A DNA stretch of 64,000 nt. It comes from Arthrobacter saudimassiliensis (GTDB taxonomy: Bacteria; Actinomycetota; Actinomycetes; Actinomycetales; Micrococcaceae). The translations under genes were made by a program, and so were the position numbers. Of the stretch, positions 3,614 to 37,199 are shown piece by piece. Positions within the stretch are counted from its first letter, which is position 1; every line of letters begins with the position of its first letter. The stretch covers positions 930,001-994,000 of the forward strand of contig LN483070.1 in NCBI GenBank assembly GCA_900016675.1, in the 5' to 3' direction. A model generated the notes under the pieces. The model was not told the origin of the DNA, did no database searches, and worked only from the letters and a program-made list of their open reading frames with translations.

Positions 3614-5128
3614 TCAGCCGCGGCGGGCGCCGGCGTCGGGCACCGCACCGGTCGCGGACGCTCCGGCGGGTACGGACACACCGCGCCCGTCGGTTTCCTC
3701 CGCCGGAACCGCAGCGGTGCGCTCGGCGTCGGTCGCCGCCTCGCCGCGGGCCTGCTCGGCCAGCAGCTCGTCGGAATCGTCGGCGAACGGCTCGCCCCGC
3801 TTGCGGGTGTTGTACAGGTCCATGTCCAGGATGCCCTGGCGCTTGGCCACGATGGCCGGCACCAGCGTCTGCCCGGCGACGTTGACGGCGGTGCGGCCCA
3901 TGTCCAGGATCGGATCGATGGCCAGCAGCAGGCCGACGCCGGCCAGCGGCAGCCCCAGGGTGGACAGGGTCAGGGTGAGCATCACGACGGCGCCGGTGGT
4001 TCCCGCGGTGGCCGCGGAGCCGAGCACCGAGACCAGCACGATCAGCAGGTACTGTCCCAGGTCCAGGTTGATGCCGAAGAACTGGGCCACGAAGATCGCG
4101 GCGACGGCCGGGTAGATGGCGGCGCAGCCGTCCATCTTGGTGGTCGCGCCCAGGGGCACGGCGAAGGACGCGTAGCCGCGCGGCACGCCCAGGTTCCGCT
4201 CGGTGACCCGCTGGGTCAGCGGCAGGGTACCCACCGAGGAGCGCGAGACGAAGGCCAGCTGGATGGCCGGCCACGCGCCGGAGAACCACTGCCGCACGGA
4301 CAGGCCGTTGGCCTTGATCAGCACCGGGTAGACCACGAACAGCACCAGGGCCAGGCCCACGTAGACGGCGATGGCGAACATGCCCAGCGAGCCGATGGTG
4401 GTCCACCCGTAGGTGGCCACGGCGCGGCCGATCAGGCCGATGGTACCCAGCGGCGCCAGGCGGATGATCCACCACAGCACCTTCTGGATCACGGCCAGGG
4501 CGGAGGCGTTGAAGGCCAGGAAGGGTTCGGCCGCCTTGCCGACCTTCAGCGCGGCGATGCCGACGGCGATGGCGATGACCAGCACCTGCAGGACGTTGAA
4601 GTTCAGGGCGGTGGTGACGGTCTCCGGGTCGACGGCGGTCGAGGAGGCGGTCAGGCCCAGGAAGTTCGAGGGGATCAGGCCGGTAAGGAAGCCGATCCAG
4701 CTGCCGGTGCCGCCCTCGTAGCCGGCTTCGGGCAGGCCGGACGTGTTGGCGCCGGGCTGCAGGATCACACCGAGGGCAATGCCGATCAATACGGCGATCA
4801 GCGCGGTGATGGCGAACCACAGCAGGGTCTGCCAGGCGAGCCGGGCGGCGTTGGACACGGCGCGCAGATTCGCGATCGAGCTGACGACGGCGGTGAAGAT
4901 CAGCGGGACGACGGCGGCCTTCAGCAGCGAGACGTAGCTGGTGCCGATGGTGTTCAGCGTGGTGGTGAGCCAGTTCGGCTCACCGTCCGCGCTCTCGCCC
5001 ATCTCACGGGCCAGCAGGCCCAGGGCCAGGCCGATGATGAGGGCGGCGATGATCTGGGGCCCGAACGCGGTCACCCAGGCGGGCAGCCGCCGTCGGGCGC
5101 TGACGGGGGAGGAGGTTTCTGAGGTCAC
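3614..5128 (-). CDS. Dicarboxylate/amino acid:cation symporter (DAACS family)
   Basis: 504 aa inner-membrane transporter of the SDF/GltP-DctA family that couples import of C4-dicarboxylates or acidic amino acids to Na+ or H+. Diagnostic segments are the serine-rich hairpin SRSSVGTLPLT (about 240), KMDGCAAIYPAVAAIFVAQFF, and the substrate-binding end DPILDMGRTAVNVAGQ. The N-terminal half has the expected membrane helices, and the last 60 residues form an acidic cytoplasmic tail. The GTG start at 5128 has no Shine-Dalgarno sequence but lies 6 nt after TAGCAT on its strand, which suggests a leaderless mRNA. The substrate cannot be read from the sequence. Confidence 0.93.
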   Translation of the reverse strand: MTSETSSPVSARRRLPAWVTAFGPQIIAALIIGLALGLLAREMGESADGEPNWLTTTLNTIGTSYVSLLKAAVVPLIFTAVVSSIANLRAVSNAARLAWQTLLWFAITALIAVLIGIALGVILQPGANTSGLPEAGYEGGTGSWIGFLTGLIPSNFLGLTASSTAVDPETVTTALNFNVLQVLVIAIAVGIAALKVGKAAEPFLAFNASALAVIQKVLWWIIRLAPLGTIGLIGRAVATYGWTTIGSLGMFAIAVYVGLALVLFVVYPVLIKANGLSVRQWFSGAWPAIQLAFVSRSSVGTLPLTQRVTERNLGVPRGYASFAVPLGATTKMDGCAAIYPAVAAIFVAQFFGINLDLGQYLLIVLVSVLGSAATAGTTGAVVMLTLTLSTLGLPLAGVGLLLAIDPILDMGRTAVNVAGQTLVPAIVAKRQGILDMDLYNTRKRGEPFADDSDELLAEQARGEAATDAERTAAVPAEETDGRGVSVPAGASATGAVPDAGARRG

Positions 5129-5309
5129 CAGAAGATGCTAGGGAAGTTTCATTAGCAGAGCATCCTCAAAGTTGCGAAATGTTACGCAGCCATTCCTGGG
5201 GCTCTTTCGGGCTGGATGGCCGAAACCCGCTCCGGACAAGGGATGCAACGCCGACGGGCGGCGCATTCCCGCGCCGTCCGTGACAAATGTCGCATTCCTC
5301 GGTGCCGTA

Positions 5310-7028
5310 TCAGCCGTCCAGCAGCGCCCGGCGCAGCGTGTCCAGGCCGACGGAACCCAGCCGCAGCGCCCGGGTGTGGAAGGCCTTGGCGTCGAAGGCA
5401 TCGCCTTCGCGGCTGCGGACCTCGTCGCGGATCTGTTCCCAGAGCCGCTGGCCCAGCTTGTAGGCCGGGGCCTGGCCGGGCCAGCCCAGGTAACGGGTGA
5501 ACTCGAAGTTCAGCTGCCCCTCGGACACGGCCATGTTCTGCTTCAGGAACTCGTAGCCCTTCTCCGCCGTCCAGGTGCCCGAGCCCCACCGCTCGGGGAC
5601 CTCCAGTTCGAGGTGCACGCCGATGTCGAAGACCACGCGGGCCGCGCGCATCCGCTGGGCGTCGAGCATGCCCATCCGGTCCCCCGGGTCGCTGAGGTAG
5701 CCCAGCTCGTCCATGAGCCGTTCGGCGTACAGCGCCCAGCCTTCGCCGTGGCCGGAGACCCAGCAGACGTTGCGGCGCCAGGAGTTCAGCGTGTCCCGGG
5801 CGGCGGTCGCGGTGCCGATCTGGAGGTGATGGCCGGGTACGCCCTCGTGGTAGACCGTGGTGGTCTCACCCCAGGTGGTGAAGGTGTCCTCCCCGGCGGG
5901 GACGGACCACCACATGCGGCCCGGGCGGGAGAAGTCCTCGCTGGGGCCGGTGTAGTAGATGCCGCCCTCGTCGGTGGGGGCAATCATGCATTCGATCGTC
6001 CGCATCTGCTCGGGAATCTCGAAGTGGGTGTCGGCCAGGTCCGCGACGGCGCGGTCGGAGAGGTCCTGCATCCATTCCCGCAGGGCTTCGGTGCCGTGCA
6101 GCTGCCGGGCCGGATCCTCGTTGAGGATGCGCATTGCCTCCTCTATTGTGGCACCTTCCCGGATCTGATTGGCCACCTGTTCCTGCTCGGCGATGATCCG
6201 GTCCAGCTCCTCGACGCCCCACCGGTAGGTCTCTTCGAGGTCGATTTCCGCGCCCAGGAAGCGGCGGGACATCAGCGCGTAGCGTTCCCGGCCGACGGCG
6301 TCCTTCTCCGGCGCCAGCGGCAGCAGCTCCTGCTCCAGGAACGTGACGAAGCCGCGGTAGCCGGCGCGGGCGGCGTCGGCGTGCACGCGCAGCTCGGCGG
6401 TGAGGTCCTGCGGCAGCTCGGTGCCGTCTCCGGCCGCGGCCCCGCTCACGAAGCGGTCGAAGAATCCGCCGTCTTCGGCGTAGCGGGTGCACTGCTCGAT
6501 GACGGTGCGCACCTGCCGGGCGGCGGGCAGCAGGCCCTGCTCGGCGCCGCTGCGCAGCGACGTCACGTAGGAGGAGAGCGCGTCGGCGACATTGCCGAGC
6601 CGGCCGCAGATGTTCCGCCAGTCCTCGACGGAGGCGGTGGGCATCAGGTCGAAGACGGAACGGATGCCCTGGGCGGGGCTGGCGATGTTGTTCAGGTCCG
6701 CCAGGTCCCAGCCGGAGGCGTGGATTTCCAGCTCCAGTTCGAGCCGCTCGTGCAGCGCGTCGAGGGTGACCCGGTCGACGTCGTCGGCCGGCTCCAGGCC
6801 CTCGAGCCGGGCCAGCGTCTCCCGGGCGGCTTCGGCGAAGTTCTCCAGCCCGGCGGGAGAGTAGTCGGGGTACTCCGTCTCGTGTCCCGGGACGCCGAGG
6901 GACGTGGCGAAAGTCGGATCCAGCTCCAGCAGGCGCTCGGTCAGCGCATCGGCAACGGCGTCGATGGCGGTCGGACGGCGCGCGGCGTCGTCGGCGGGCA
7001 GGGCGGGAGGCGTTGTCTGTTCGGTCAC
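5310..7028 (-). CDS. DUF885 family protein (putative zinc hydrolase)
   Basis: 572 aa, the usual length for DUF885 proteins. These are thought to be metal-dependent carboxypeptidase-like hydrolases, but few have been characterised. The key segments are VYHEGVPGHHLQ (about residue 400), which fits a helical zinc site, and HGEGWALYAERLMDELGY about 30 residues later. The C-terminus keeps LNFEFTRYLGWPGQAPAYKLG and LRLGSVGLDTLRRALL. No signal peptide is visible, so it is probably cytoplasmic. The GTG start at 7028 lies 6 nt after TAGGCT, suggesting a leaderless mRNA. The substrate is unknown. Confidence 0.88.
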   Translation of the reverse strand: MTEQTTPPALPADDAARRPTAIDAVADALTERLLELDPTFATSLGVPGHETEYPDYSPAGLENFAEAARETLARLEGLEPADDVDRVTLDALHERLELELEIHASGWDLADLNNIASPAQGIRSVFDLMPTASVEDWRNICGRLGNVADALSSYVTSLRSGAEQGLLPAARQVRTVIEQCTRYAEDGGFFDRFVSGAAAGDGTELPQDLTAELRVHADAARAGYRGFVTFLEQELLPLAPEKDAVGRERYALMSRRFLGAEIDLEETYRWGVEELDRIIAEQEQVANQIREGATIEEAMRILNEDPARQLHGTEALREWMQDLSDRAVADLADTHFEIPEQMRTIECMIAPTDEGGIYYTGPSEDFSRPGRMWWSVPAGEDTFTTWGETTTVYHEGVPGHHLQIGTATAARDTLNSWRRNVCWVSGHGEGWALYAERLMDELGYLSDPGDRMGMLDAQRMRAARVVFDIGVHLELEVPERWGSGTWTAEKGYEFLKQNMAVSEGQLNFEFTRYLGWPGQAPAYKLGQRLWEQIRDEVRSREGDAFDAKAFHTRALRLGSVGLDTLRRALLDG

Positions 7029-7034
7029 AGACGA

Positions 7035-7065
7035 AGCCTAACCGCATCGGAAGAGGAATCAGCAA
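7035..7065 (-). promoter_or_regulatory. Probable leaderless promoter of the DUF885 gene
   Basis: On the minus strand, TTGCTG (7065-7060) is followed about 19 nt later by TAGGCT (7040-7035), with 6 nt to the GTG at 7028. This is inferred from position only. Confidence 0.5.
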
Positions 7066-7182
7066 CACGACCGAAATCAGCCGGCAACAGCCTTGACTCC
7101 CGCCCATGCCGGCGCTATGGGCGTTCAGGACCGGCTGGCTGACGGGCCGTCCCGCCCGCTCAACCGTCCAGGCAGGACGGCG

Positions 7183-7428
7183 TCAGCGGTAGCTGCGCCG
7201 CCAGGCACCGGGACCGGGAGCCGGCAGCAGCCGCAGCTGCCGACGGCGGGTCCAGGCCCGTGCGGCACGGTGGCGGTCCGGGGCGGCCTCGGGCGCCGGA
7301 CCGGTGAGGCCGACGACGACGGCGGTCAGCGCCGCGAGCTCCTCGTGGGTGGGGTTTCCGCCCACCACGCGGAACAGCGGCTCGGGGATCTCTTCGGGCC
7401 CGGGCAGGCCGATCGGCTGGGCACTCAC
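7183..7428 (-). CDS. accE: Acyl-CoA carboxylase epsilon subunit
   Basis: 81 aa. This small actinobacterial subunit stabilises the alpha-beta acyl-CoA carboxylase complex. It shows the family pattern [21 protein letters not shown] (residues 18-38), a variable middle and a basic, aromatic end [21 protein letters not shown]. Its GTG start overlaps the accD stop in a GTGA junction (7425-7428), so the two are translated together. Presence of an epsilon subunit supports an acetyl/propionyl-CoA carboxylase of the AccA3-AccD5-AccE5 kind. Confidence 0.93.
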
Positions 7429-9020
7429 AGCGGGATGTTCCCATGCTTCTTGTGCGGCAGGGCGGCACGCTTGTCGCGCAGCGCCCGCAGCCCGCGGATG
7501 ATCTGCAGGCGGGTCTCGGACGGGGCGATCACCGCATCCACGTAGCCCAGCTCCGCGGCCTGATAGGGGTTCAGCAGTTCCTCCTCATAGGCATTGATGT
7601 AGCCCTCGCGCGCGGCGTCGACGTCCTCGCCTGCTGCCGCGGCGGCCTTCAGCTGGGCGCGGTAGAGGATGTTGACCGCGCCCTGGGCGCCCATGACGCC
7701 GATCTGCGCGGTGGGCCAGGCCAGGTTCAGGTCCGCCCCGAGCTTCTTGGAGCCCATGACGATGTACGCGCCGCCGTAGGCCTTGCGGGTGATCACGGTC
7801 AGCTTGGGCACCGTGGCCTCGGCGTAGGCGTACAGCAGCTTGGCGCCGCGGCGGATGATGCCGTTGAACTCCTGGTCGGTGCCGGGCAGGAAGCCGGGCA
7901 CGTCCACGAAGGTCAGGATCGGAATATTGAACGCGTCGCAGTGCCGCACGAACCGGGCCGCCTTCTCCGAGGCGGCGATGTCCAGGGTGCCGGCGAACTG
8001 CATCGGCTGGTTGGCCACGATGCCCACGGTGTGCCCCTCGACCCGGCCGTAACCGATGATCACGTTGGGGGCGTACAGGGCGGAGACCTCCAGGAAGTGG
8101 CCGTCGTCGATGACCTGTTCGATGACCGCGCGCATGTCGTAGGGCTGGTTGGCGGAGTCGGGAATCAGCGTGTCCAGGGCCAGGTCGCCGTCGTTGGCCT
8201 CCTCGTCCTGGGCGAAGGCGGCCACGGGCGCCTCGGCAAGGTTGTTCGACGGCAGGAAGTCCAGCAGCTCGCGGACGAACTCGACGGCGTCCTCCTCATC
8301 CGCGGCCAGGTAGGCGGAGGTGCCGGTGGCGGTGTTGTGCTGCCGCGCCCCGCCGAGGGTCTCCATATCCACGTCTTCGCCGGTGACGGTCTTGATCACG
8401 TCGGGCCCGGTGATGAACATGTGGCTGGTTTTGTCCACCATGACCACGTAGTCGGTGAGGGCGGGGGAGTAGGCCGCGCCGCCGGCGGAGGGGCCCATGA
8501 TCAGCGAGATCTGCGGGATGACGCCGGAGGCATGCACGTTGTTGCGGAAGATGTCCGCGAACATGGCCAGCGAGGCGACGCCTTCCTGGATGCGGGCGCC
8601 GCCGCCGTCGAGGATGCCGATCACCGGGCAGCCGGTGCGGAGCGCAAATTCCTGGACCTTGGCGATCTTGCCGCCGTTGACCTGGCTGAGCGAGCCGCCG
8701 TAGACGGAGAAGTCCTGGCTGTAGAGGGCGACCTGGCGGCCGTCGACGGTGGCGTAGCCGGAGACCAGGCCGTCGCCGAGCGGCTTCTTCTTTTCCATGC
8801 CGAAGGCTGTGGAGCGGTGCACGGCCAGGGCATCGAACTCCACGAAGGAGCCGGCGTCCACCAGCATCTCGATGCGCTCACGGGCGGTGTGCTTGCCGCG
8901 GGCGTGCTGCTTCTCGATCGCCTCGGGGCCGGCGGGAGCCAGCGCTTCGGCCTGCCGCCGCCGCAGTTCGGCGAGTTTGCCGGCGGTGGTGTGCAGGTCG
9001 GTCTGCTGGTCCAAGCTCAT
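7425..9020 (-). CDS. accD: Acyl-CoA (propionyl-CoA) carboxylase beta chain, carboxyltransferase
   Basis: 531 aa, full length for AccD5/PccB-type carboxyltransferases, which move the carboxyl group from carboxybiotin to acyl-CoA for methylmalonyl-CoA or malonyl-CoA supply. Both crotonase-like halves are present: the N-terminal half with [18 protein letters not shown], and the C-terminal half with [35 protein letters not shown] and [13 protein letters not shown]. The ATG at 9020 follows GAGGA at 7 nt. It is translationally coupled to accE. The substrate is probably propionyl-CoA and/or acetyl-CoA, but chain-length preference cannot be read with certainty. Confidence 0.95.
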
Positions 9021-24628: not shown

Positions 24629-26131
24629 ATGAGTGAACTGATCACCGCCAGCGCCGCGCAGCTGGCCGAGAAGCTTGCCGCCCGCGAGGTCTCCGCCGTC
24701 GACGTGGTCCAGGCGCACCTGGACCGCATCAATGAGGTGGACCGCGACGTCAACGCGTTCCTGCACGTGAACACCGATGAGGCGCTCGCCGTGGCCGCCG
24801 AGGTCGACGCCGCCCGCGCCGCCGGCGAGCAGCTGCATGAGCTGGCCGGCGTGCCGATCGCGATCAAGGACCTGATCGTCACCAAGGGCCAGCCCACCAC
24901 GGCCGGTTCGAAGATGCTCGAGGGCTGGATGAGCCCCTACGACGCCACGGTCATCTCCCGCATCCGCGCCGCCCGCCTGCCGATGCTCGGCAAGACCAAC
25001 CTGGACGAGTTCGCCATGGGCTCCTCCACCGAGCACTCCGCGTTCGGCCCCACCCGCAACCCGTGGGACCTTGACCGGATCCCCGGCGGCTCCGGCGGCG
25101 GTTCCGCTGCCGCCGTCGCGGCCTTCGAGGCTCCGCTGGCGCTGGGCACCGACACCGGCGGCTCGATCCGCCAGCCGGCCGCCGTGACCGGCTCGGTGGG
25201 CGTCAAGCCCACCTACGGCGGCGTCTCCCGCTACGGCGCGATCGCCATGGCCTCCTCCCTGGACCAGATCGGCCCGGTCTCCCGCACCGTGCTCGACGCC
25301 GCGCTGCTGCAGGAACTGATCGGCGGCCACGATCCGCGCGACTCCACCTCGCTGACCGACCCGGTCGGCAACCTGGCCGAGGCGGCCCGCAACGGCAACG
25401 TTGCCGGCATGCGCATCGGCGTCGTCCGCGAACTGCAGGGCGAAGGCTACGAGGCCGGCGTGCAGGCCCGCTTCGACGAATCGCTTCAGCTGCTCAAGGA
25501 CGCCGGCGCCGAGATCGTCGAGGTCTCCTGCCCCAACTTCAAGTACGCCCTGGGCGCCTACTACCTGATCATGCCGTCGGAGGCCTCCTCCAACCTGGCC
25601 AAGTACGACGGCGTCCGGTACGGCCTGCGCCGCCTGCCCTCGGATCCGCCGCTGACCATTGAGCGGGTCATGGGCGCCACCCGCGCCGCCGGCTTCGGTG
25701 ACGAGGTCAAGCGCCGCATCATCCTGGGTACCTACGCCCTCTCCGCCGGCTACTACGACGCCTACTACGGCTCGGCCCAGAAGGTGCGCACGCTGATCCA
25801 GCGCGACTTCGACGCCGCGTTCGCGCAGGCCGACGTGCTGATCTCCCCGACCTCCCCGAACACCGCGTTCAAGCTGGGGGAGAAGCTGGACGATCCGCTG
25901 GCCATGTACCTGAACGACATCGCCACCATTCCGGCGAACATGGCCGGCGTGCCCGGCATCTCGGTGCCCGGCGGCCTGGCCGACGGGCTGCCGGTGGGCA
26001 TCCAGTTCCTGGCCCCCGCCCGTGAGGACGCCCGCCTGTACCGGGCCGGCGCCGCGCTGGAAGGGCTGCTTGAGCAGAAGTGGGGCGGCCCGCTGCTGGC
26101 CTCCGCCCCGGTACTCGGAGGAGTGAAGTAA
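24629..26131 (+). CDS. gatA: Asp-tRNA(Asn)/Glu-tRNA(Gln) amidotransferase subunit A
   Basis: 500 aa, the glutaminase subunit of the amidation route to Gln-tRNA and Asn-tRNA. Amidase-signature triad: Lys80 (AIKDLI), cis-Ser in [12 protein letters not shown] and nucleophile Ser in [11 protein letters not shown]. Family length is normal. The stop TAA overlaps the gatB ATG by one base. Confidence 0.97.
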
Positions 26132-27648
26132 TGTCCGTGCACACCCAGGACGAGGTCCTGTCCTTCGAGACGGCCATGGAGAAGTACGACCCGGTGCTCG
26201 GGTTCGAGGTCCACGTGGAGCTGAACACGAAGACCAAGATGTTCTCCGACGCCCCCAACGTGTTCGGCGACGAGCCCAACACCAACGTCACCCCCGTGGA
26301 CCTGGGCATGCCCGGCGTGCTGCCGGTGGTCAACAAGACGGCGGTGGAGTACTCGATCCTCATCGGCCTGGCGCTGAACTGCAAGATCGCCGAATCCTGC
26401 ACCTTCGCCCGCAAGCAGTACTTCTACCCGGACACGCCCAAGAACTTCCAGACCTCCCAGTACGAGGACCCCATCGCCTACGACGGGTACCTCGACATTG
26501 AGCTGGAGGACGGCGAGGTCTTCCGCGTGGAGATCGAGCGCGCGCACATGGAGGAGGACGCCGGCAAGCTGACCCACATGGGCGGCGCCGCCGGCCGCAT
26601 CCAGGGCGCCGACTTCTCCCTGGTCGACTACAACCGGGCCGGCGTGCCGCTGGTGGAGATCGTCACCAAGCCCATCGAGGGCGCCGGGTCCCGGGCTCCC
26701 GAGCTGGCCAAGGCCTACGTCGCCGCCATCCGCGAAATCGTGAAGAACCTCGGGGTCTCCGACGCCCGCATGGAGCGCGGCAACGTGCGCTGCGACGCCA
26801 ACGTCTCCCTGCGCCCGCACGGGCAGGAGAAGTTCGGCACCCGCTCCGAGACGAAGAACGTGAACTCGCTGCGCGCCGTCGAACGCGCCGTCCGTTACGA
26901 GATCCAGCGGCACGCCGCCGTTCTGGAATCCGGCAGCAAGGTGGTCCAGGAGACCCGGCACTGGCACGAAGACACCCGCTCCACCACTTCCGGCCGGCCC
27001 AAGTCCGACGCCGACGACTACCGATACTTCCCGGAACCGGACCTGCTGCCGGTGGTCACCACCCCGGAGTGGATCGAGGAGCTGCGCTCCCGGCTGCCCG
27101 AGCCGCCGGCCGAGCGGCGCCGGCGCCTGAAGGCGGACTGGGGCTACTCCGACGCCGAGTTCCGTGACGTCGTCAACGCCGGTGTGATGGACGCGATCGA
27201 GGAGACCGTCGCCGCCGGCGCCTCCGCCGCTGTCGCCCGCAAGTGGTGGATGGGCGAGGTTGCCCGGCGGGCCAAGGAAGCCGAAGTCGATCCGGTCGAC
27301 GTGGGCGTCACCCCCGAGCTCATCGTGGAACTGGACCGCCTGGTCCAGGCCGGCAAGATCAACGACAAGCTGGCCCGCCAGGTGCTCGACGGCGTGCTCG
27401 CCGGCGAGGGCACCCCGGAGGAAGTCATCGAGAAGCGCGGCCTGGCCGTGGTCTCCGACGACGGCGCGCTGCTGGAAGCGATCGACGCCGCCCTCGCGGC
27501 CCAGCCCGACGTCGCGGACAAGATCCGCGGCGGCAAGGTCCAGGCCGTCGGCGCCATCGTGGGCGGGGTCATGAAGGCCACCCGCGGGCAGGCCGACGCC
27601 GGCCGTGTACGCGAGCTGATCCTCGAACGTCTCGGCGTGCAGGGCTGA
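26131..27648 (+). CDS. gatB: Asp-tRNA(Asn)/Glu-tRNA(Gln) amidotransferase subunit B
   Basis: 505 aa, the tRNA-dependent kinase and amide-transfer subunit. Hallmarks are GFEVHVELNTKTKMFS, DYNRAGVPLVEIVTKP and RSETKNVNSLRAVERAVRYEI, with a C-terminal GatB/YqeY tRNA-binding domain ending in AIVGGVMKATRGQADAGRVRELI. The ATG at 26131 follows GGAGG and overlaps gatA, so translation is coupled. Confidence 0.97.
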   Translation: MSVHTQDEVLSFETAMEKYDPVLGFEVHVELNTKTKMFSDAPNVFGDEPNTNVTPVDLGMPGVLPVVNKTAVEYSILIGLALNCKIAESCTFARKQYFYPDTPKNFQTSQYEDPIAYDGYLDIELEDGEVFRVEIERAHMEEDAGKLTHMGGAAGRIQGADFSLVDYNRAGVPLVEIVTKPIEGAGSRAPELAKAYVAAIREIVKNLGVSDARMERGNVRCDANVSLRPHGQEKFGTRSETKNVNSLRAVERAVRYEIQRHAAVLESGSKVVQETRHWHEDTRSTTSGRPKSDADDYRYFPEPDLLPVVTTPEWIEELRSRLPEPPAERRRRLKADWGYSDAEFRDVVNAGVMDAIEETVAAGASAAVARKWWMGEVARRAKEAEVDPVDVGVTPELIVELDRLVQAGKINDKLARQVLDGVLAGEGTPEEVIEKRGLAVVSDDGALLEAIDAALAAQPDVADKIRGGKVQAVGAIVGGVMKATRGQADAGRVRELILERLGVQG

Positions 27649-30490: not shown

Positions 30491-31153
30491 TCAGCCCGCG
30501 ACGGCGGACAGCCGCGAACGGAAGCCCTCCAGCATGGCGGAGAGCGCCAGGTCGAAGGCGCGGTCAGCTGCCTCGCCCGGATCCCGGGGACGGTCCCGGG
30601 CGGCGGCGGCGAACCGGGGCGCCAGGTCGGCGAGCTCGCCCGGATCGAAGATATCCGCCGGAGCCGTGGCATCGTACGCGGCGCCGAAGACCAGCGACTC
30701 CACGGCCACGATGACATTGACGGCCTCCGCGCCTGGCCACCCGGCATCCATCAGCCCGCGGGCGACCGCCTCATACATCTCAAGCGTGTGCGGGGAATCG
30801 CCCACCGGCAGCACGGCCATCACCGGAATCATCGCGGTGTGCTGCGCGTAGCAGTCCCGATAGGACCGGGCCCAGCCTTCCAGGGCCGCGTCCCAGGCCA
30901 GGACGCCAAAACCGGAGCAGTCGATGCTCCGGTTGATCCTGTCCTGGACCCGGACCAGCACATCCCTTTTGGAGGGGGTGTGGTTGTACAGCGCCGATGT
31001 GGAGACCTTCAGTTCCCGGGCCAGTTCCGTCATGGTCAGGTGCCGGTAGCCCCGGTCGCTCACGATGCGGATCGCGGCGTCGGTGATCCCTTCGGTGGAG
31101 AGCAGGGGCTCGGTGGGGCGGCCGCGTCGTCGGGCGGTGCGGGCGATGGCCAT
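30491..31153 (-). CDS. TetR family transcriptional regulator
   Basis: 220 aa. Helix-turn-helix in residues 20-66 (ITDAAIRIVSDRGYRHLTMTELARELKVSTSALYNHTPSKRDVL), with a ligand domain behind it. The ATG at 31153 follows GAGGAG. It is divergent from the putrescine oxidase operon across 168 bp containing a perfect palindrome, so it most likely represses that operon and perhaps itself. A polyamine or an intermediate would be the logical inducer (inference). Confidence 0.92.
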   Translation of the reverse strand: MAIARTARRRGRPTEPLLSTEGITDAAIRIVSDRGYRHLTMTELARELKVSTSALYNHTPSKRDVLVRVQDRINRSIDCSGFGVLAWDAALEGWARSYRDCYAQHTAMIPVMAVLPVGDSPHTLEMYEAVARGLMDAGWPGAEAVNVIVAVESLVFGAAYDATAPADIFDPGELADLAPRFAAAARDRPRDPGEAADRAFDLALSAMLEGFRSRLSAVAG

Positions 31154-31253
31154 GGAGCTCCTCGGAAGGGACGTGGGGCTGGGGACGGCAGGGAGGCTGG
31201 ATCCAGTCTAGGCAGGTGCGTTACGGCGCTGTGTTAATTCCATGTTTCGGACC

Positions 31254-31283
31254 TTGACGCCGATCACCCCCAACCCACTTAAT
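31254..31283 (+). promoter_or_regulatory. Promoter of the putrescine/agmatine operon
   Basis: TTGACG (31254-31259), 18-nt spacer, CTTAAT (31278-31283). The best sigma-70-like match in the window. The predicted start, near 31290, lies inside the operator palindrome. Confidence 0.65.
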
Positions 31284-31297
31284 GAATCTAATTCATT
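31281..31297. promoter_or_regulatory. Operator palindrome for the adjacent TetR regulator
   Basis: AATGAAT-CTA-ATTCATT, perfect 7-bp arms in an AT-rich patch of a very GC-rich genome. It overlaps the end of the -10 box and the start site, where a repressor would block transcription. It lies 25 nt before the GTG start of the oxidase gene. Confidence 0.75.
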
Positions 31298-31321
31298 TCT
31301 TGTCGTGAGGGAGAACACACC

Positions 31322-32782
31322 GTGTCGGATCAGAGGACACTGGGCAGCATCAAGGCCATCGAGCGGGACGTCGTCGTCGTCGGGGCGGGCCCGGCCGGCC
31401 TGATGGCCGCGCGCACGCTCGCCGCGGCCGGCATATCCGTGGCAGTGCTGGAGGCCCGCGACCGGGTCGGCGGGCGCACCTGGTCCCGCACCATTGACGG
31501 CGCCTTCCTGGAGATCGGCGGGCAGTGGGTTTCGCCGGACCAGACCGAGCTGCTGGGCCTGCTGAAGGAGCTCGGCAAGCAGACCTTCCCGCGCTACCGC
31601 GACGGCGCAGCGGTCTACCTGGGCGTGGACGGGACCCGCCACACCTACACGGGCACCACTTTCCCCGCCGGGGAGCAGACCATCGCCGAAATGGACCGGC
31701 TCACCGCCGAGCTGGACGCCCTGGCAGCCGAAATCGGACCGCGTGAGCCGTGGGCCCATCCGCGCGCCCGCGAACTGGACACCATCTCCTTCCACCACTG
31801 GCTGCGCTCGCAGTCCTCGGACGAAGCGGCCTGCAACAACATCGGCCTGTTCGTGGCGGGCGGCATGCTCACAAAGCCCGCGCACTCCTTCTCCGCGCTG
31901 CAGGCCGTGCTCATGGCTGCCTCGGCCGGTTCCTTCTCCAACCTGGTGGACGACGGGTTCATCCTGGACCGCCGCGTCGTCGGCGGCATGCAGTCCGTGT
32001 CCGAGGCCATGGCCGCCGAACTGGGCGAGGACGTGGTGTTCCTCGAGACCCCGGTGCGCGCCATCCGGTGGGGCGGACCGGAGGACACCTACGCCGAGCA
32101 TGTGCCCGGAACTCCCGTCACCGTCTGGAGCGACCGGCTTACGGTCACGGCGCGCGACGTCGTCGTCGCCGTCCCGCCGAACCTGTACTCCCGCATCTCC
32201 TTTGAACCGCCGCTGCCGCGCCTGCAGCACCAGATGCACCAGCACCAGTCGCTGGGCCTCGTGATCAAGGTCCACGCCGTCTACGAGACCCCGTTCTGGC
32301 GCGAAGCCGGCCTCTCCGGCACCGGCTTCGGCGCGGGCGAACTGGTCCAGGAGGTCTACGACAACACCAACCACGGGGACTCCCGCGGCACGCTGGTGGG
32401 CTTTGTCTCCGATGAAAAGGCCGACGCCGTGTTCGCCCTCCCGGCCGAGGAGCGCCGCCAGGCGATCCTTGCCTCCCTGGCCCGGTACCTCGGCGAGCAG
32501 GCGCTGGAACCGGTGGTGTATTACGAATCCGACTTCGGCTCGGAGGAATGGACCCGCGGCGCCTACGCTGCCAGCTACGACCTCGGCGGGCTGCACCGCT
32601 ACGGCGCGCACCAGCGCACCCCCGTGGGACCCATCCGCTGGGCCTGCTCCGACCTCGCCGCCGAGGGCTACCAGCACGTTGACGGCGCCCTGCGCCAGGG
32701 CCGGCTGGCCGCCGAGGAAATCCTCGGCGGCGGCGCGCCGGCTGCAACCGAACCCGGTACCGACAAGGAGACCGTCGCATGA
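31322..32782 (+). CDS. puo: Putrescine oxidase-like flavin monoamine oxidase
   Basis: 486 aa. The N-terminal FAD motif is VVVGAGPAGLMAARTLA (18-34) followed by EARDRVGGRTWS, and the C-terminal FAD segment is PIRWACSDLAAEGYQHVDGA. Overall pattern and length match actinobacterial putrescine oxidases, which convert putrescine and O2 to 4-aminobutanal, NH3 and H2O2. GTG start at 31322 with AGGGAG. First gene of a four-gene operon; its stop overlaps the permease start (ATGA). A closely related amine substrate such as cadaverine or tyramine cannot be excluded. Confidence 0.85.
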   Translation: MSDQRTLGSIKAIERDVVVVGAGPAGLMAARTLAAAGISVAVLEARDRVGGRTWSRTIDGAFLEIGGQWVSPDQTELLGLLKELGKQTFPRYRDGAAVYLGVDGTRHTYTGTTFPAGEQTIAEMDRLTAELDALAAEIGPREPWAHPRARELDTISFHHWLRSQSSDEAACNNIGLFVAGGMLTKPAHSFSALQAVLMAASAGSFSNLVDDGFILDRRVVGGMQSVSEAMAAELGEDVVFLETPVRAIRWGGPEDTYAEHVPGTPVTVWSDRLTVTARDVVVAVPPNLYSRISFEPPLPRLQHQMHQHQSLGLVIKVHAVYETPFWREAGLSGTGFGAGELVQEVYDNTNHGDSRGTLVGFVSDEKADAVFALPAEERRQAILASLARYLGEQALEPVVYYESDFGSEEWTRGAYAASYDLGGLHRYGAHQRTPVGPIRWACSDLAAEGYQHVDGALRQGRLAAEEILGGGAPAATEPGTDKETVA

Positions 32783-34308
32783 AGACCCGCCTTCCCGCCG
32801 CCCGCAACGGCGACCCTGCCCTGGGCGGACATGCCAAGGGCCTCAGCGCCGGCTCAGTGGGCCTGCTCGGCTCCCTCGTGATCGGCGTCTCCACCATCGC
32901 TCCGGCGTACACCCTCTCCGGGGCGCTGGGTCCGACGGCGGCGGAAGTCGGCGTGTACCTGCCGGCCATCCTGCTGGTCGGTTTCGTGCCCATGCTGCTG
33001 GTCGCCATCGGCTACCGGCAGCTGAACCGTGCGATGCCCGACTCCGGCACCACCTTCACCTGGGTCTCCAAGGCCTTCGGCCCCTGGCTGGGGTGGATGG
33101 GCAGCTGGGGCCTGCTGGCCGCGACCATCCTGGTGCTCTCGAACCTGGCCGGCATCGCCGTGGACTTCTTCTACCTGGCCCTGGCACAGATCACCGGCAA
33201 TGACGGCATCGCCGAGCTGACCCGCAACGTGCCCATCAACATCGCCACCTGCCTGGCCTTCGTTGCCGCCGCCACCTGGGTCTCCTACCGGGGCATGGAG
33301 GCGACCAAGGCCGTGCAGTACGTGCTGGTGGCGTTCCAGCTGATCGTGCTCATCTGGTTCTCCGTGGCCGCATTCGGACACGTCGCCGGCGGCACCGCGT
33401 TCGACGGGCTGACCATCCGGCCGGAGTGGTTCAACCCGCTCGGCGTGGAGTCCTTCTCCGCCTTCGCCGCGGGCATCTCGCTGTCCGTGTTCATTTACTG
33501 GGGCTGGGACGTCGTGCTGACCATGAACGAGGAAAGCCGCGGCGCGGCGACCACTCCCGGCAAGTCGGCAATTGTCACCATCCTGGTGATCGTCGCCCTG
33601 TACATGACCGTGTCCCTGGGCGTGCTGTCCTTCTCCGGCGTCTCCGACGAAGGGCTGGGCATGGGCAACCCGGACATCCAGGAGAACATCTTCGCCGCGC
33701 TGGCCGGCCCCATCATGGGCCCGTTCGCGATCCTGATGTCCCTGGCCGTGCTCTCATCCTCCGCCGCATCGCTGCAGTCCACGATGATCTCGCCGGCCCG
33801 CACCATGCTCGCCATGGGGCACTACGGCGGGCTGCCGGACAAGTACGCCACGGTCACCGAGCGCTTCCGCTCGCCCGGCTACGCCACCGTGGCCTCCGCC
33901 GTCATCGCCTCGGTCTTCTACGCGGTGATGCGCGTGGTCTCGGAGAACGTCCTCTGGGACACGATCACCACGCTGGGGATGATGGTCTGCTTCTACTACG
34001 GAGTCACCGCGCTGGCCTGTGTCTGGTACTTCCGCCGCGACGCCTTCCGCAGCGTGAAGGGCTTTCTGGCCAAGATCCTGGCCCCGCTGATCGGCGGGAT
34101 CCTGCTGCTGGTGTTCTTCGTGCAGACCTCCTACGACTCGATGGATCCCGAGTACGGCTCCGGATCCGAGATCGGCGGCGTCGGGCTGGTCTTTGTCCTT
34201 GGCGTCGGGATCCTGGTGCTCGGTGTCGCGGCGATGCTGGTCCAGTACCGGCGCAGCCCCGACTTCTTCCGGAACCGGTTCGAAACCACCGAACTGCCGG
34301 TCGACTGA
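32779..34308 (+). CDS. APC family amino acid/polyamine permease
   Basis: 509 aa with about 12 predicted membrane helices. N-terminal APC pattern GLLGSLVIGVSTIAPAYTLSGALG and GTTFTWVSKAFGPWLGWMGSWG (helix 3). The conserved helix-6 to helix-7 region is IYWGWDVVLTMNEESRGAATTPGKSAIV. The ATGA overlap with the oxidase gene places it as the operon transporter, most likely for putrescine or agmatine. Specificity is inferred from context. Confidence 0.9.
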   Translation: MKTRLPAARNGDPALGGHAKGLSAGSVGLLGSLVIGVSTIAPAYTLSGALGPTAAEVGVYLPAILLVGFVPMLLVAIGYRQLNRAMPDSGTTFTWVSKAFGPWLGWMGSWGLLAATILVLSNLAGIAVDFFYLALAQITGNDGIAELTRNVPINIATCLAFVAAATWVSYRGMEATKAVQYVLVAFQLIVLIWFSVAAFGHVAGGTAFDGLTIRPEWFNPLGVESFSAFAAGISLSVFIYWGWDVVLTMNEESRGAATTPGKSAIVTILVIVALYMTVSLGVLSFSGVSDEGLGMGNPDIQENIFAALAGPIMGPFAILMSLAVLSSSAASLQSTMISPARTMLAMGHYGGLPDKYATVTERFRSPGYATVASAVIASVFYAVMRVVSENVLWDTITTLGMMVCFYYGVTALACVWYFRRDAFRSVKGFLAKILAPLIGGILLLVFFVQTSYDSMDPEYGSGSEIGGVGLVFVLGVGILVLGVAAMLVQYRRSPDFFRNRFETTELPVD

Positions 34309-34377
34309 CCCGCCAGACCGCTTCACTCCGCCGCGCCCCGCTCCGAACCAGCGCCCCACACCAAAGGAACCGCTCCG

Positions 34378-35472
34378 ATGCACACCACTGGTCCCCACGC
34401 TCCCGGCATGCCGGGGGAGTGGCACCGCCACGAACGAACCTGGATGGCGTTTCCGCCGCCGAACGACACCTTCGGCCCGGAGGGATCGGACACCTTGGCG
34501 CGGGCCCGGCGGGCCTGGGCGGCCGTGGCCCGAACCATCGCCCGGTATGAGCCGGTGACCGTCGTCGCCGCTCCCGACGACGCCGCAGCCGCCCGCGCGG
34601 CGCTCGGCATCGGGGGAGACGGCAGCGGCGGCGACGCGGGACAGGCCGGCATCACCGTGGTCACCGCGCCGCTCGACGACGCCTGGCTGCGCGATTCCGG
34701 TCCCACGTTCGTGCACGCTGCGGACGGCTCCGTGGCGGCGGTGGACTGGGTGTTCAACGGGTGGGGCGCCCAGGGCTGGGCCGCGTGGGGCAACGACCGG
34801 CACTTGGGGCGCTTCGTCGCGGGCCAGGCCGGTGCGCCGGTGCATGGCAGCCGGCTGGTGAATGAGGGCGGCGGGTTCCATGTGGACGGGGCGGGCACCG
34901 TGCTGCTCACCGAGACCGTTCAGCTTGATCCCGGCCGGAACCCCGGCGCCACGCGGGAGCAGGTGGAGGCGGAAATCCACGCTCGGCTGGGCACCGACAC
35001 CGCGATCTGGCTGCCCCGCGGCCTGACCAGGGACTACGACGAGTTCGGCACGCGCGGGCACGTGGACATCGTGGCCGCGTTCGCCGGGCCCGGCACGGTG
35101 CTGGTGCACCGCCAGGACGACCCGGCCCATCCCGATTTCGAGGTGACCCGGCAGATCCGTGCCGTCCTCGCCGACGCCGTCGACGCCCGTGGCCGGCGGC
35201 TGGACATCATCGACGTTCCGGCGCCGGCCATCCTCGACGCCGGCGACGGGTTCGTCGACTACTCGTACATCAACCATTACGTGGCCAACGGGGCGGTGAT
35301 CCTGTGTGCCTTCGATGACCCGAACGACGCCGTTGCCGCCGACATCCTGGCCCGCGCCTACCCGGGCCGCACAGTCGAGCTGGTCGATGCCAGGGAGATC
35401 TTCGCCTTTGGCGGCGGCATCCACTGCATCACGCAGCAGCAGCCGGCACCGCTGCGGGAGGCGGCTGAGTGA
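34378..35472 (+). CDS. aguA: Agmatine deiminase
   Basis: 364 aa, hydrolysing agmatine to N-carbamoylputrescine and NH3. All hallmarks of the peptidyl-arginine-deiminase fold are present: MPGEWHRHERTWMAFP at the N-terminus, DDAWLRDSGP (Asp101-Pro109), NEGGGFHVDG (Glu163), GHVD (His228) and nucleophile Cys350 in FGGGIHCITQQQP. One atypical feature is a Gly-rich insert near residues 79-90. AAAGGA precedes the ATG at 34378, and the GTGA overlap couples it to the amidase gene. It lies 69 nt after the permease. Confidence 0.93.
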   Translation: MHTTGPHAPGMPGEWHRHERTWMAFPPPNDTFGPEGSDTLARARRAWAAVARTIARYEPVTVVAAPDDAAAARAALGIGGDGSGGDAGQAGITVVTAPLDDAWLRDSGPTFVHAADGSVAAVDWVFNGWGAQGWAAWGNDRHLGRFVAGQAGAPVHGSRLVNEGGGFHVDGAGTVLLTETVQLDPGRNPGATREQVEAEIHARLGTDTAIWLPRGLTRDYDEFGTRGHVDIVAAFAGPGTVLVHRQDDPAHPDFEVTRQIRAVLADAVDARGRRLDIIDVPAPAILDAGDGFVDYSYINHYVANGAVILCAFDDPNDAVAADILARAYPGRTVELVDAREIFAFGGGIHCITQQQPAPLREAAE

Positions 35473-37199
35473 GCGGCACCGGAATCGACGTCGCCGAGGC
35501 GTCCATCGCCGACCTGCGTGCCGCAATGGAACAGGGGCTGGCCACCAGCGAGGAACTGACAACCACCTACCTGGCGCGCATCGCGGCCTATGACACCGCC
35601 GGCCCGGCGCTGAACGCCATGGTCGTCCTGAACCCCGACGCGCTCTCCGAGGCCCGCGCCGCCGACGAGCGGAGGCGGCGGGGCGAGGTGCTGGGACCGC
35701 TGGACGGCATCCCCTACACCGCGAAGGACAGCTTCCGGGCCCGCGGGCTGACCGTCGCGGCGGGATCGCCTGCTTTCGAGCACCTGGTCGCCCAGGACGA
35801 CGCGTTCACGATCGAGCGCCTGCGGTCCGCCGGCGCGGTGCTGATCGGGCTGACGAACATGCCGCCGATGGCCAACGGCGGCATGCAGCGCGGACTGTAC
35901 GGCCGCGCTGAGAGCCCCTACAACGCCGCCTACCTCACCTCGGCATTTGCGTCCGGGTCCTCCAACGGCTCCGGCACCGCGACCGCCGCGAGCTTCGCCG
36001 CCTTCGGCCTGGGGGAGGAGACCTGGTCCTCCGGGCGGGCCCCGGCGTCGAACAACGCCCTCTGCGCGTACACCCCGTCCCGCGGGGTGATTTCGGTGCG
36101 CGGCAACTGGCCCCTGGTCCCCACCATGGACGTGGTGGTCCCGCACGCCCGGACCATGGCGGACCTGCTGGAAGTGCTGGACATAGTGGTAGCCGACGAT
36201 TCCGAAACCCGCGGAGACTTCTGGCGGGTCCAGCCGTGGGTTCCGATACCCGCTGCCTCGGCGGTCCGCCCCGCCTCCTACCGCGCCCTGGCCCCGGCGT
36301 CGACGGCGGCCGCCCGACAGGCCCTGGCCGGTGTCCGCCTCGGCGTGCCGCGCATGTACATCAACGCGGACCCCGACGCCGGCACCGCCGCCAACCCCGG
36401 GATCGGCGGGCCGACCGGACAGCGCATCCACACGCGGGAGAGCGTCATGGACCTCTGGCACGCGGCCCGGGCAGACCTGGAAGCGGCCGGCGCGCAGGTT
36501 ATCGAGGTCGACTTCCCGGCCGTCAGCAACTACGAGGGCGACCGCCCCGGCGCGCCCACCATCGCCACCCGGGGCCTGGTCAGCCCCGAGTACCTGCACC
36601 GCGAGCTGCTGGACCTGGCGGCGTGGTCCTGGGACGACTTCCTTCGGGCCAACGGGGACCCGGCCCTCAACCGCCTGACCGACGTCGACGGGAGCAGGAT
36701 CTTCCCGCATCCGGCGGGAGCGCTGCCGGACCGCTATCACGGGTTCGAGGACGACATTGCCGCCTATCCTCAGCACGTGCGGGAGCACGGCGTGGACTCG
36801 GTGGAGCAGATCCCGCACCTGGCGGAGGGGCTGCGCGGGCTGGAGGAAACGCGGCGGCTGGACCTGGAGCAGTGGATGCACGGGCTGGGGCTGGACGCCG
36901 TCGTCTTTCCCGCCGTGGCCGACGTCGGGCCGGCCGATGCGGACGTGAACCCGGCCTCCGCGGACCTGGCTTGGCGCAACGGTGTGTGGGTGGCCAACGG
37001 AAACCTCGTTCCCCGGCACCTGGGCATCCCCACGGTGACTGTGCCCATGGGCACGATGGCGGACACCGGCATGCCGGTGGGGCTCACCTTCGCGGGCAAA
37101 GCGTGGGATGACACCGCCCTGCTGCGGCTGGCGGCGGCCTTCGAGGGCACCGGACGGCGTCGGACGGCACCGCCGCGAACACCCCCGCTGGGAGGCTGA
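35469..37199 (+). CDS. Amidase-signature family amidase, candidate N-carbamoylputrescine hydrolase
   Basis: 576 aa, about 80-100 residues longer than GatA. The Ser-cisSer-Lys machinery is retained: Lys86 (YTAKDSF), cis-Ser in SGSSNGSGTATAAS (about 162-175) and nucleophile Ser188 in EETWSSGRAPAS, where WSSGR replaces the common GGSIR. That change next to the nucleophile points to an unusual substrate. The start overlaps the agmatine deiminase stop (GTGA). Context suggests it hydrolyses N-carbamoylputrescine to putrescine, a step normally done by nitrilase-family AguB. Allophanate-hydrolase-like or general amidase roles remain possible. Confidence 0.87.
   Translation: MSGTGIDVAEASIADLRAAMEQGLATSEELTTTYLARIAAYDTAGPALNAMVVLNPDALSEARAADERRRRGEVLGPLDGIPYTAKDSFRARGLTVAAGSPAFEHLVAQDDAFTIERLRSAGAVLIGLTNMPPMANGGMQRGLYGRAESPYNAAYLTSAFASGSSNGSGTATAASFAAFGLGEETWSSGRAPASNNALCAYTPSRGVISVRGNWPLVPTMDVVVPHARTMADLLEVLDIVVADDSETRGDFWRVQPWVPIPAASAVRPASYRALAPASTAAARQALAGVRLGVPRMYINADPDAGTAANPGIGGPTGQRIHTRESVMDLWHAARADLEAAGAQVIEVDFPAVSNYEGDRPGAPTIATRGLVSPEYLHRELLDLAAWSWDDFLRANGDPALNRLTDVDGSRIFPHPAGALPDRYHGFEDDIAAYPQHVREHGVDSVEQIPHLAEGLRGLEETRRLDLEQWMHGLGLDAVVFPAVADVGPADADVNPASADLAWRNGVWVANGNLVPRHLGIPTVTVPMGTMADTGMPVGLTFAGKAWDDTALLRLAAAFEGTGRRRTAPPRTPPLGG

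What the first reader, a model, noticed from the sequence alone, without database searches (positions are those of the whole stretch)
31154..37199. Agmatine-to-putrescine-to-aminobutanal operon with an amidase-signature enzyme in place of AguB
Four overlapping or closely spaced genes encode putrescine oxidase, an APC permease, agmatine deiminase with every catalytic residue (Cys350, His228, Glu163), and an amidase-signature amidase coupled to it by a GTGA overlap. Agmatine deiminase makes N-carbamoylputrescine, which must be hydrolysed before putrescine oxidase can act. In known pathways this is done by nitrilase-family AguB, and no such gene is here. The amidase keeps its Lys-cisSer-Ser set but has an altered nucleophile loop (WSSGR). 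I infer a non-homologous replacement of AguB. This would be a self-contained inducible agmatine catabolic system.
Basis: partly seen in the sequence, partly recalled or inferred. Interest (0 to 1): 0.75.

Follow-up and report, generated by a model that had tools for sequence, protein, structure and literature searches.

The report
Agmatine operon with AguY-type amidase
A bacterium carries one gene set that looks built to import agmatine and break it down through putrescine, in which the middle step is done by an amidase unrelated to the usual enzyme; this enzyme type was described in 2025, so the locus is a new, well-supported example, not a new kind of system.

Summary
Four genes run together: putrescine oxidase, APC permease, AguA and an amidase-signature protein joined to aguA by a GTGA overlap.

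This genome has one nitrilase-fold match, not AguB. In 245 genomes of the same family, 52 of 150 listed AguA-type genes have the amidase adjacent, 55 an AguB-like nitrilase, none both. Of 124 genomes with high-scoring AguA, 122 hold one or the other.

New beyond the paper's text: AguY inside a catabolic operon with putrescine oxidase and permease (not the usual setting: 3 of 80 named loci). A palindrome at 31281-31297 is unique in the genome; versions precede some amidase- and some nitrilase-type cassettes. A divergent amidase branch may have replaced the nitrilase a second time. No enzyme was assayed here.

The parts
30491..31153 (-). TetR-family regulator, divergent from the operon
   Evidence: PF00440 and PF02909; homologues of 30-65% identity lie divergent from putrescine oxidase genes in ten other loci
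31281..31297 (.). palindrome AATGAATCTAATTCATT, probable operator of the TetR regulator (binding not shown)
   Evidence: single occurrence of WATGAAYNNNRTTCATW in the 3.55-Mb genome, reversed control 0; versions precede some related cassettes
31322..32782 (+). putrescine oxidase (Puo), flavin amine oxidase
   Evidence: nearest solved structures are putrescine oxidases 3rha and 2yg3, 740 and 699 bits; PF01593 264 bits
32779..34308 (+). APC-family permease, probable agmatine/putrescine importer (substrate inferred)
   Evidence: PF13520 81 bits; 4-base overlap with puo; homologues of 56-69% identity in 6 of 8 nitrilase-type neighbourhoods read
34378..35472 (+). agmatine deiminase-like AguA
   Evidence: PF04371 345 bits; best PDB match 1vkp agmatine iminohydrolase 218 bits; Cys350, His228, Glu163; below TIGR03380 cut-off
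35469..37199 (+). AguY: amidase-signature N-carbamoylputrescine amidohydrolase (function inferred)
   Evidence: NF005127 1053.7 bits; Tse8 structure 910 bits over residues 2-575; K86/S164/S188 conserved

Best explanation
This is a catabolic operon for exogenous agmatine. The APC permease imports agmatine and/or putrescine; [quoted passage not shown] Puo oxidises putrescine to 4-aminobutanal, which enzymes encoded elsewhere (a PRK13473-type aldehyde dehydrogenase at C3:284971, recalled to be the aminobutyraldehyde dehydrogenase model, and a GABA transaminase at C2:558250) take on towards succinate. A divergent TetR protein represses the operon by binding the palindrome at 31281-31297, and agmatine or a pathway intermediate relieves it. 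Shown here: gene order, family membership, no AguB match, exclusion pattern, unique palindrome. Published for close kin: the amidase activity. Inferred: activity of this protein, permease substrate, TetR binding and inducer.
For: NF005127 membership at nearly twice the cut-off; full-length match to Tse8, which PMC12283126 places inside AguY; two AguY enzymes there have kcat/Km of 1.8e5 and 6.4e5 per M per s on N-carbamoylputrescine, against 0.8e5 for AguB. One nitrilase-fold match in the genome and it is not AguB; no putrescine transcarbamylase above cut-off. In 245 family genomes: 52 of 150 listed AguA loci adjacent to amidase, 55 to AguB-like nitrilase, 0 to both; of 124 genomes with high-scoring AguA, 63 amidase only, 53 nitrilase only, 6 both, 2 neither. 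AguA genes largely sort by partner in a tree of 72 rows (40 amidase-adjacent, 21 nitrilase-adjacent, 11 neither), with 2 changes between the first two labels. The window amidase is nested in a set of 36 rows of which 33 are aguA-adjacent. The palindrome gives 26 exact hits against 0 for the reversed control in 1.64 Mb, upstream of both cassette types. A PRK13473-type aldehyde dehydrogenase (687 bits, cut-off 615) and GABA transaminase (603, cut-off 506.65) are in the genome.
Against: No assay of this protein. AguA is below the curated agmatine deiminase cut-off. Of 80 named relatives of the amidase, 24 have no aguA in the stretch held and 1 has it about 6 kb off, so some members may do something else, as Tse8 does. 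The full operon is not the rule: Puo was matched in 3 of the 80 named loci and in 9 of 20 aguA-amidase neighbourhoods read, and in neither of the two same-genus ones (L087, L088). No palindrome at up to one mismatch was found in 84 of 119 loci. An agmatinase-family protein exists elsewhere in the genome (TIGR01230 222 bits, cut-off 174), though its best solved relative is guanidinobutyrase, so agmatine may have a second route. An Orn/Lys/Arg decarboxylase-like protein leaves open a biosynthetic source of agmatine.
Confidence: 0.93

Rival explanations
1. The amidase acts on another amide taken up by the same permease, and N-carbamoylputrescine is hydrolysed by an unlinked nitrilase or by a transcarbamylase.
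For: 24 of 80 named relatives lack a neighbouring aguA; amidase-signature enzymes have diverse substrates (recalled).
Against: The only PF00795 match of the genome scores 50 of 410 bits for AguB; the best transcarbamylase scores 261 of 500 and lies next to an aminotransferase match at C1:1112189, as argF would; exclusion with AguB-like nitrilases; enzymology of close kin.
Confidence: 0.04
2. The amidase is a Tse8-like translation-blocking protein that happens to sit in an amine operon.
For: Nearest solved structure is the T6SS effector Tse8.
Against: Its gene overlaps aguA by four bases, and its set in the tree is 33 of 36 aguA-adjacent; PMC12283126 derives Tse8 from AguY, not the reverse. T6SS genes were not searched for.
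Confidence: 0.01
3. The operon is mainly for putrescine use; AguA and the amidase supply putrescine for biosynthesis.
For: A PF01276 decarboxylase-like protein is encoded elsewhere; most aguA-amidase loci of relatives have no Puo next to them.
Against: Here Puo, which destroys putrescine, is the first gene of the same operon, behind a palindrome unique in the genome.
Confidence: 0.05

Closest known systems
AguA-AguY pathway (Shewanella oneidensis, Microterricola gilva; PMC12283126)
   Same: Amidase of the same family directly downstream of aguA, no AguB in the genome (as the paper states for S. oneidensis)
   Different: Here the pair is in one operon with putrescine oxidase and an APC permease, beside a divergent TetR; the words putrescine oxidase, permease, Arthrobacter, Kocuria and Micrococc- do not occur in the paper's text (figures not held)
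AguA-AguB pathway (nitrilase-type N-carbamoylputrescine amidohydrolase)
   Same: Same substrate and product; AguB-like cassettes of the same bacterial family carry related AguA, mostly an APC permease, and in some cases the palindrome
   Different: Non-homologous hydrolase
Tse8, T6SS effector of Pseudomonas aeruginosa (PDB 6te4, 6yhv)
   Same: Homologous over the full length, same active-site loop
   Different: Tse8 is reported as secreted and as binding the transamidosome; its gene is not beside aguA
Agmatine deiminase system with putrescine transcarbamylase
   Same: AguA step
   Different: Uses a transcarbamylase; none over cut-off here

Membership tests
AguY (amidase-type N-carbamoylputrescine amidohydrolase) | Full-length membership of the NF005127/Tse8 amidase family | tested here: met
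   1053.7 bits vs 575; Tse8 910 bits, residues 2-575
AguY (amidase-type N-carbamoylputrescine amidohydrolase) | Gene adjacent to aguA | tested here: met
   GTGA overlap
AguY (amidase-type N-carbamoylputrescine amidohydrolase) | Lys-cisSer-Ser triad intact | tested here: met
   K86, S164, S188 in 115 of 115 aligned sequences incl. the window's; roles by recalled spacing
[quoted passage not shown]
   Shown for two relatives only (PMC12283126); their sequences were not in hand for direct comparison
AguB (nitrilase fold) | CN_hydrolase domain, TIGR03381 over cut-off | tested here: not met
   Amidase matches only PF01425 in Pfam; no AguB match in the genome
Agmatine deiminase (AguA) | PAD_porph fold with catalytic Cys, His, Glu | tested here: met
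   PF04371 345 bits; residues; alignment to 1vkp
Agmatine deiminase (AguA) | Over the curated equivalog cut-off TIGR03380 | tested here: not met
   270.2 bits vs 381.8
Putrescine oxidase | Close sequence relation to characterised putrescine oxidases | tested here: met
   3rha 740 bits, 2yg3 699 bits; best chain of another name 253 bits
Tse8-type T6SS effector | Immunity gene neighbour and T6SS in the genome | not tested
   Neighbouring genes are Puo, APC, AguA, TetR; neither an immunity gene nor T6SS genes were searched for

The most novel reading that the evidence does not exclude
In this bacterial family (Micrococcaceae by inference) agmatine catabolism is a modular regulon under one palindromic operator, in which the N-carbamoylputrescine hydrolase has been exchanged at least twice: once for main-line AguY with its own AguA lineage, and once for a divergent amidase branch (51-58% identical to the window protein in the five members read) that took over inside the AguA lineage otherwise paired with nitrilase AguB. 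Fourteen genomes hold high-scoring AguA with only an amidase of the divergent score class (600-850 bits), and none of these has the AguB-like nitrilase; one of the fourteen (G010) falls outside the divergent branch of the tree on a long branch of its own.
Probability: 0.55. Interest if true: 0.45.

Novelty: new member of a known kind. Interest (0 to 1): 0.33.

Why it matters
It may explain a gap in agmatine use by Arthrobacter-like bacteria: the Arthrobacter sp. Rue61a genome paper lists agmatine use as 'incomplete' from the genome yet reports growth (PMC3534580, passages; its text does name AguB for the step, and I did not test whether that strain has this amidase). It extends AguY from a pathway pair to a catabolic operon with a candidate switch, gives a clean natural experiment in non-homologous enzyme exchange, and would let NF005127 ('amidase') be annotated by function where it sits beside aguA.

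Tried and rejected
Searched for a hidden AguB: only a deaminated-glutathione-amidase-like protein. Searched for putrescine transcarbamylase: none over cut-off. Considered the nitrilases of 241-255 bits in 23 of the 245 genomes as the true enzyme: 17 of those 23 genomes have high-scoring AguA, none of the 23 genes is within 5 kb of a listed AguA, and the one whose neighbours I looked at (L111) sits with an amidohydrolase and a luciferase-like monooxygenase, so another role is likelier; the window's genome has none of them. Looked for further copies of the palindrome in the genome as a regulon: none. Looked for a common neighbour of amidases without aguA: ten neighbour proteins from five loci were tested and share none.

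Choices that affect counts: 'adjacent' means under 300 bp on the same strand (under 600 bp, under 400 bp); the AguA table stops at 150 rows, and what is unlisted scores no higher than the last row shown (227 bits); I split nitrilases at 230 bits and AguA at 260 bits after seeing gaps in the scores; split amidase hits of G064 and G109 were merged, as coordinates, before counting. Trees were quick ones with SH-aLRT support only; rows under 300 (AguA) or 500 (amidase) residues and duplicates were dropped; the AguA tree holds the window's gene twice (as L008), and the 115 amidases may too. The loci in the trees are the best-scoring 30 of each search plus neighbourhoods that I chose and, for the amidase, the 80: not a random draw.

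Full report
What is there. One search places four + strand genes at 31322-32782, 32779-34308, 34378-35472 and 35469-37199, with a divergent TetR gene at 30491-31153. The overlap of the last two is GTGA. By sequence they are a putrescine oxidase (nearest solved chains 3rha and 2yg3, both named putrescine oxidase), an APC permease, an agmatine deiminase-like protein (PF04371, best PDB match agmatine iminohydrolase 1vkp) and an amidase-signature protein. AguA keeps Cys350, His228 and Glu163 but scores 270 bits against TIGR03380, under its 381.8 cut-off.

The amidase. It belongs to NCBIfam NF005127, described only as 'amidase' (1053.7 bits, cut-off 575). Its nearest solved structure is Tse8, 910 bits over residues 2-575.

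Prior work. A search for Tse8 led to PMC12283126 (Biochem J, July 2025; I read the abstract, parts 1-3 of 5 of the text and section 19). It names this family AguY, shows that the S. oneidensis and M. gilva members hydrolyse N-carbamoylputrescine at least as efficiently as AguB, and argues that Tse8 evolved from AguY. Its text has no occurrence of putrescine oxidase, permease, Arthrobacter, Kocuria or Micrococc-; figures are not held. Searches for AguY (45 papers hold the word, 20 listed, and by title only this one of the listed is about the enzyme), for N-carbamoylputrescine with amidase signature (none), for agmatine deiminase, amidase, N-carbamoylputrescine and Arthrobacter (3), for putrescine oxidase with agmatine deiminase and operon (3) and for putrescine oxidase with TetR and agmatine (10) gave no listed paper whose title or abstract start describes this operon; apart from passages of PMC3534580 I did not read those papers.

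This genome. PF00795 finds one protein in 3.55 Mb, at C3:90878; it scores 170 bits for deaminated glutathione amidase and 50 for AguB. No putrescine transcarbamylase reaches the cut-off. PF01425 finds four proteins, of which at E <= 1e-100 NF005127 matches only the window gene. A PRK13473-type aldehyde dehydrogenase (687 bits, cut-off 615; that this model stands for aminobutyraldehyde dehydrogenase is recalled) and a GABA transaminase (603, cut-off 506.65) could complete the route. An agmatinase-family protein (best PDB relative guanidinobutyrase) and an Orn/Lys/Arg decarboxylase-like protein are also present; the single PF02784 protein is lysA.

Comparative test. The same 245 genomes were searched with NF005127 (E <= 1e-100), PF04371 (1e-20) and TIGR03381 (1e-40): 72, 146 and 70 had matches. 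Of 150 listed AguA places, 52 have the amidase adjacent, 55 an AguB-like nitrilase adjacent, 0 both; 6 have a divergent amidase about 1.7 kb away, 1 a nitrilase 1.5 kb away and 36 neither, 14 of these a low-scoring PF04371 group. By genome, 124 have a high-scoring AguA: 63 amidase only, 53 nitrilase only, 6 both, 2 neither (G026, G077). Of the six, G085 has one cassette of each kind, and the other five, all of the window's genus, have an amidase cassette plus a nitrilase unlinked to aguA. Amidase without a high-scoring AguA: 3 of 72 genomes. All nitrilases in this sample are under the AguB cut-off, so 'AguB-like' is the right word.

Setting. The complete operon is not the common form. Puo was matched in 9 of the 20 aguA-amidase neighbourhoods that I chose and the permease in 6, in 1 and 6 of 8 nitrilase-type ones, and Puo plus permease in 3 of 80 named loci, some of which are cut short. 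The two same-genus neighbourhoods read (L087, L088) show neither.

Trees. In a tree of 72 AguA rows the amidase-adjacent (40) and nitrilase-adjacent (21) ones separate with 2 changes of label; 11 rows had neither next to them, 9 of which fall with the nitrilase lineage. Among those 9 are five whose amidase lies about 1.7 kb away (L043, L050, L052, L056, L057), and one amidase-adjacent row (L086) also falls there; in the two such loci whose gene order I read (L100, L101) the permease lies between aguA and amidase. The amidases of L086, L100, L101, L107 and L108 form a separate, divergent branch. Sixteen genomes have only an amidase of the divergent score class; 14 of them have high-scoring AguA and none has the AguB-like nitrilase. 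One of the 14, G010 (L085), lies outside that branch on a long branch. This suggests a second exchange. In the amidase tree of 114 rows the window protein lies in a set of 36 (SH-aLRT 96), 33 of them aguA-adjacent.

Regulation. The TetR-puo gap holds the palindrome AATGAATCTAATTCATT. The relaxed form WATGAAYNNNRTTCATW occurs at one place in the genome (on both strands, being a palindrome) and its reversed control nowhere. Ten other divergent TetR-puo gaps were read: 7 hold an exact match, 2 a one-mismatch match (L084, L085) and 1 a different palindrome (L081). Across 119 loci (1.64 Mb) there are 26 exact hits and 43 with up to one mismatch, against 0 and 0 for the reversed control; 22 loci have an exact and 6 a one-mismatch hit within 700 bp of the start of a cassette gene or its TetR, 7 have only distant hits and 84 have none. 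Of 8 nitrilase-type loci, 3 have an exact and 1 a one-mismatch hit. In 16 further loci scanned the reversed control had one one-mismatch hit (L212) and the palindrome one exact and five one-mismatch hits. Hits precede puo, aguA, the permease, the nitrilase and, in L106, an amidase 8 kb from aguA, so some amidase- and some nitrilase-type cassettes seem to share a kind of regulator. Binding is not shown.

Verdict. The enzyme class was established in 2025; what this locus adds is a compact catabolic operon around AguY, and the survey adds a shared candidate operator and a possible second exchange.

Noticed in passing
L104 (G031:C1:2776000-2790000), 4138-7831: A second amidase copy without aguA sits behind an APC permease that has the exact palindrome 136 bp upstream.
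   Followed up: partly
L100, L101, L086, L107, L108: A divergent NF005127 branch (51-58% identity to the window protein); in L100 and L101 the order is aguA, permease, amidase.
   Followed up: partly
L204, L205 (same-genus genomes G032, G241): An unlinked nitrilase scoring 198 and 216 bits for AguB, in L204 beside a DAO-type oxidase and an aldehyde dehydrogenase; the window's own genome shows no such match.
   Followed up: partly
L111 (G032:C6:590500-603500): A nitrilase of 254.6 bits for AguB beside an amidohydrolase and a luciferase-like monooxygenase, unlinked to aguA; role unknown.
   Followed up: partly
L139: In a Streptomyces locus the AguY-like gene has no aguA nearby but lies close to an IucA/IucC-type siderophore synthetase gene and a TetR gene, which might point to supply of a diamine for a siderophore.
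   Followed up: no
L169, L172, L183, L187: Four Pseudomonas AguY-like genes, one tight clade, none with aguA nearby; in L172 the neighbours are a BCCT transporter and a PALP enzyme.
   Followed up: no
   Followed up: no
window 24629-27648: gatA and an ORF that reads like gatB (by recall) lie 8-9 kb upstream of the amidase; GatA is itself an amidase-signature protein, and the nearness looks coincidental.
   Followed up: no
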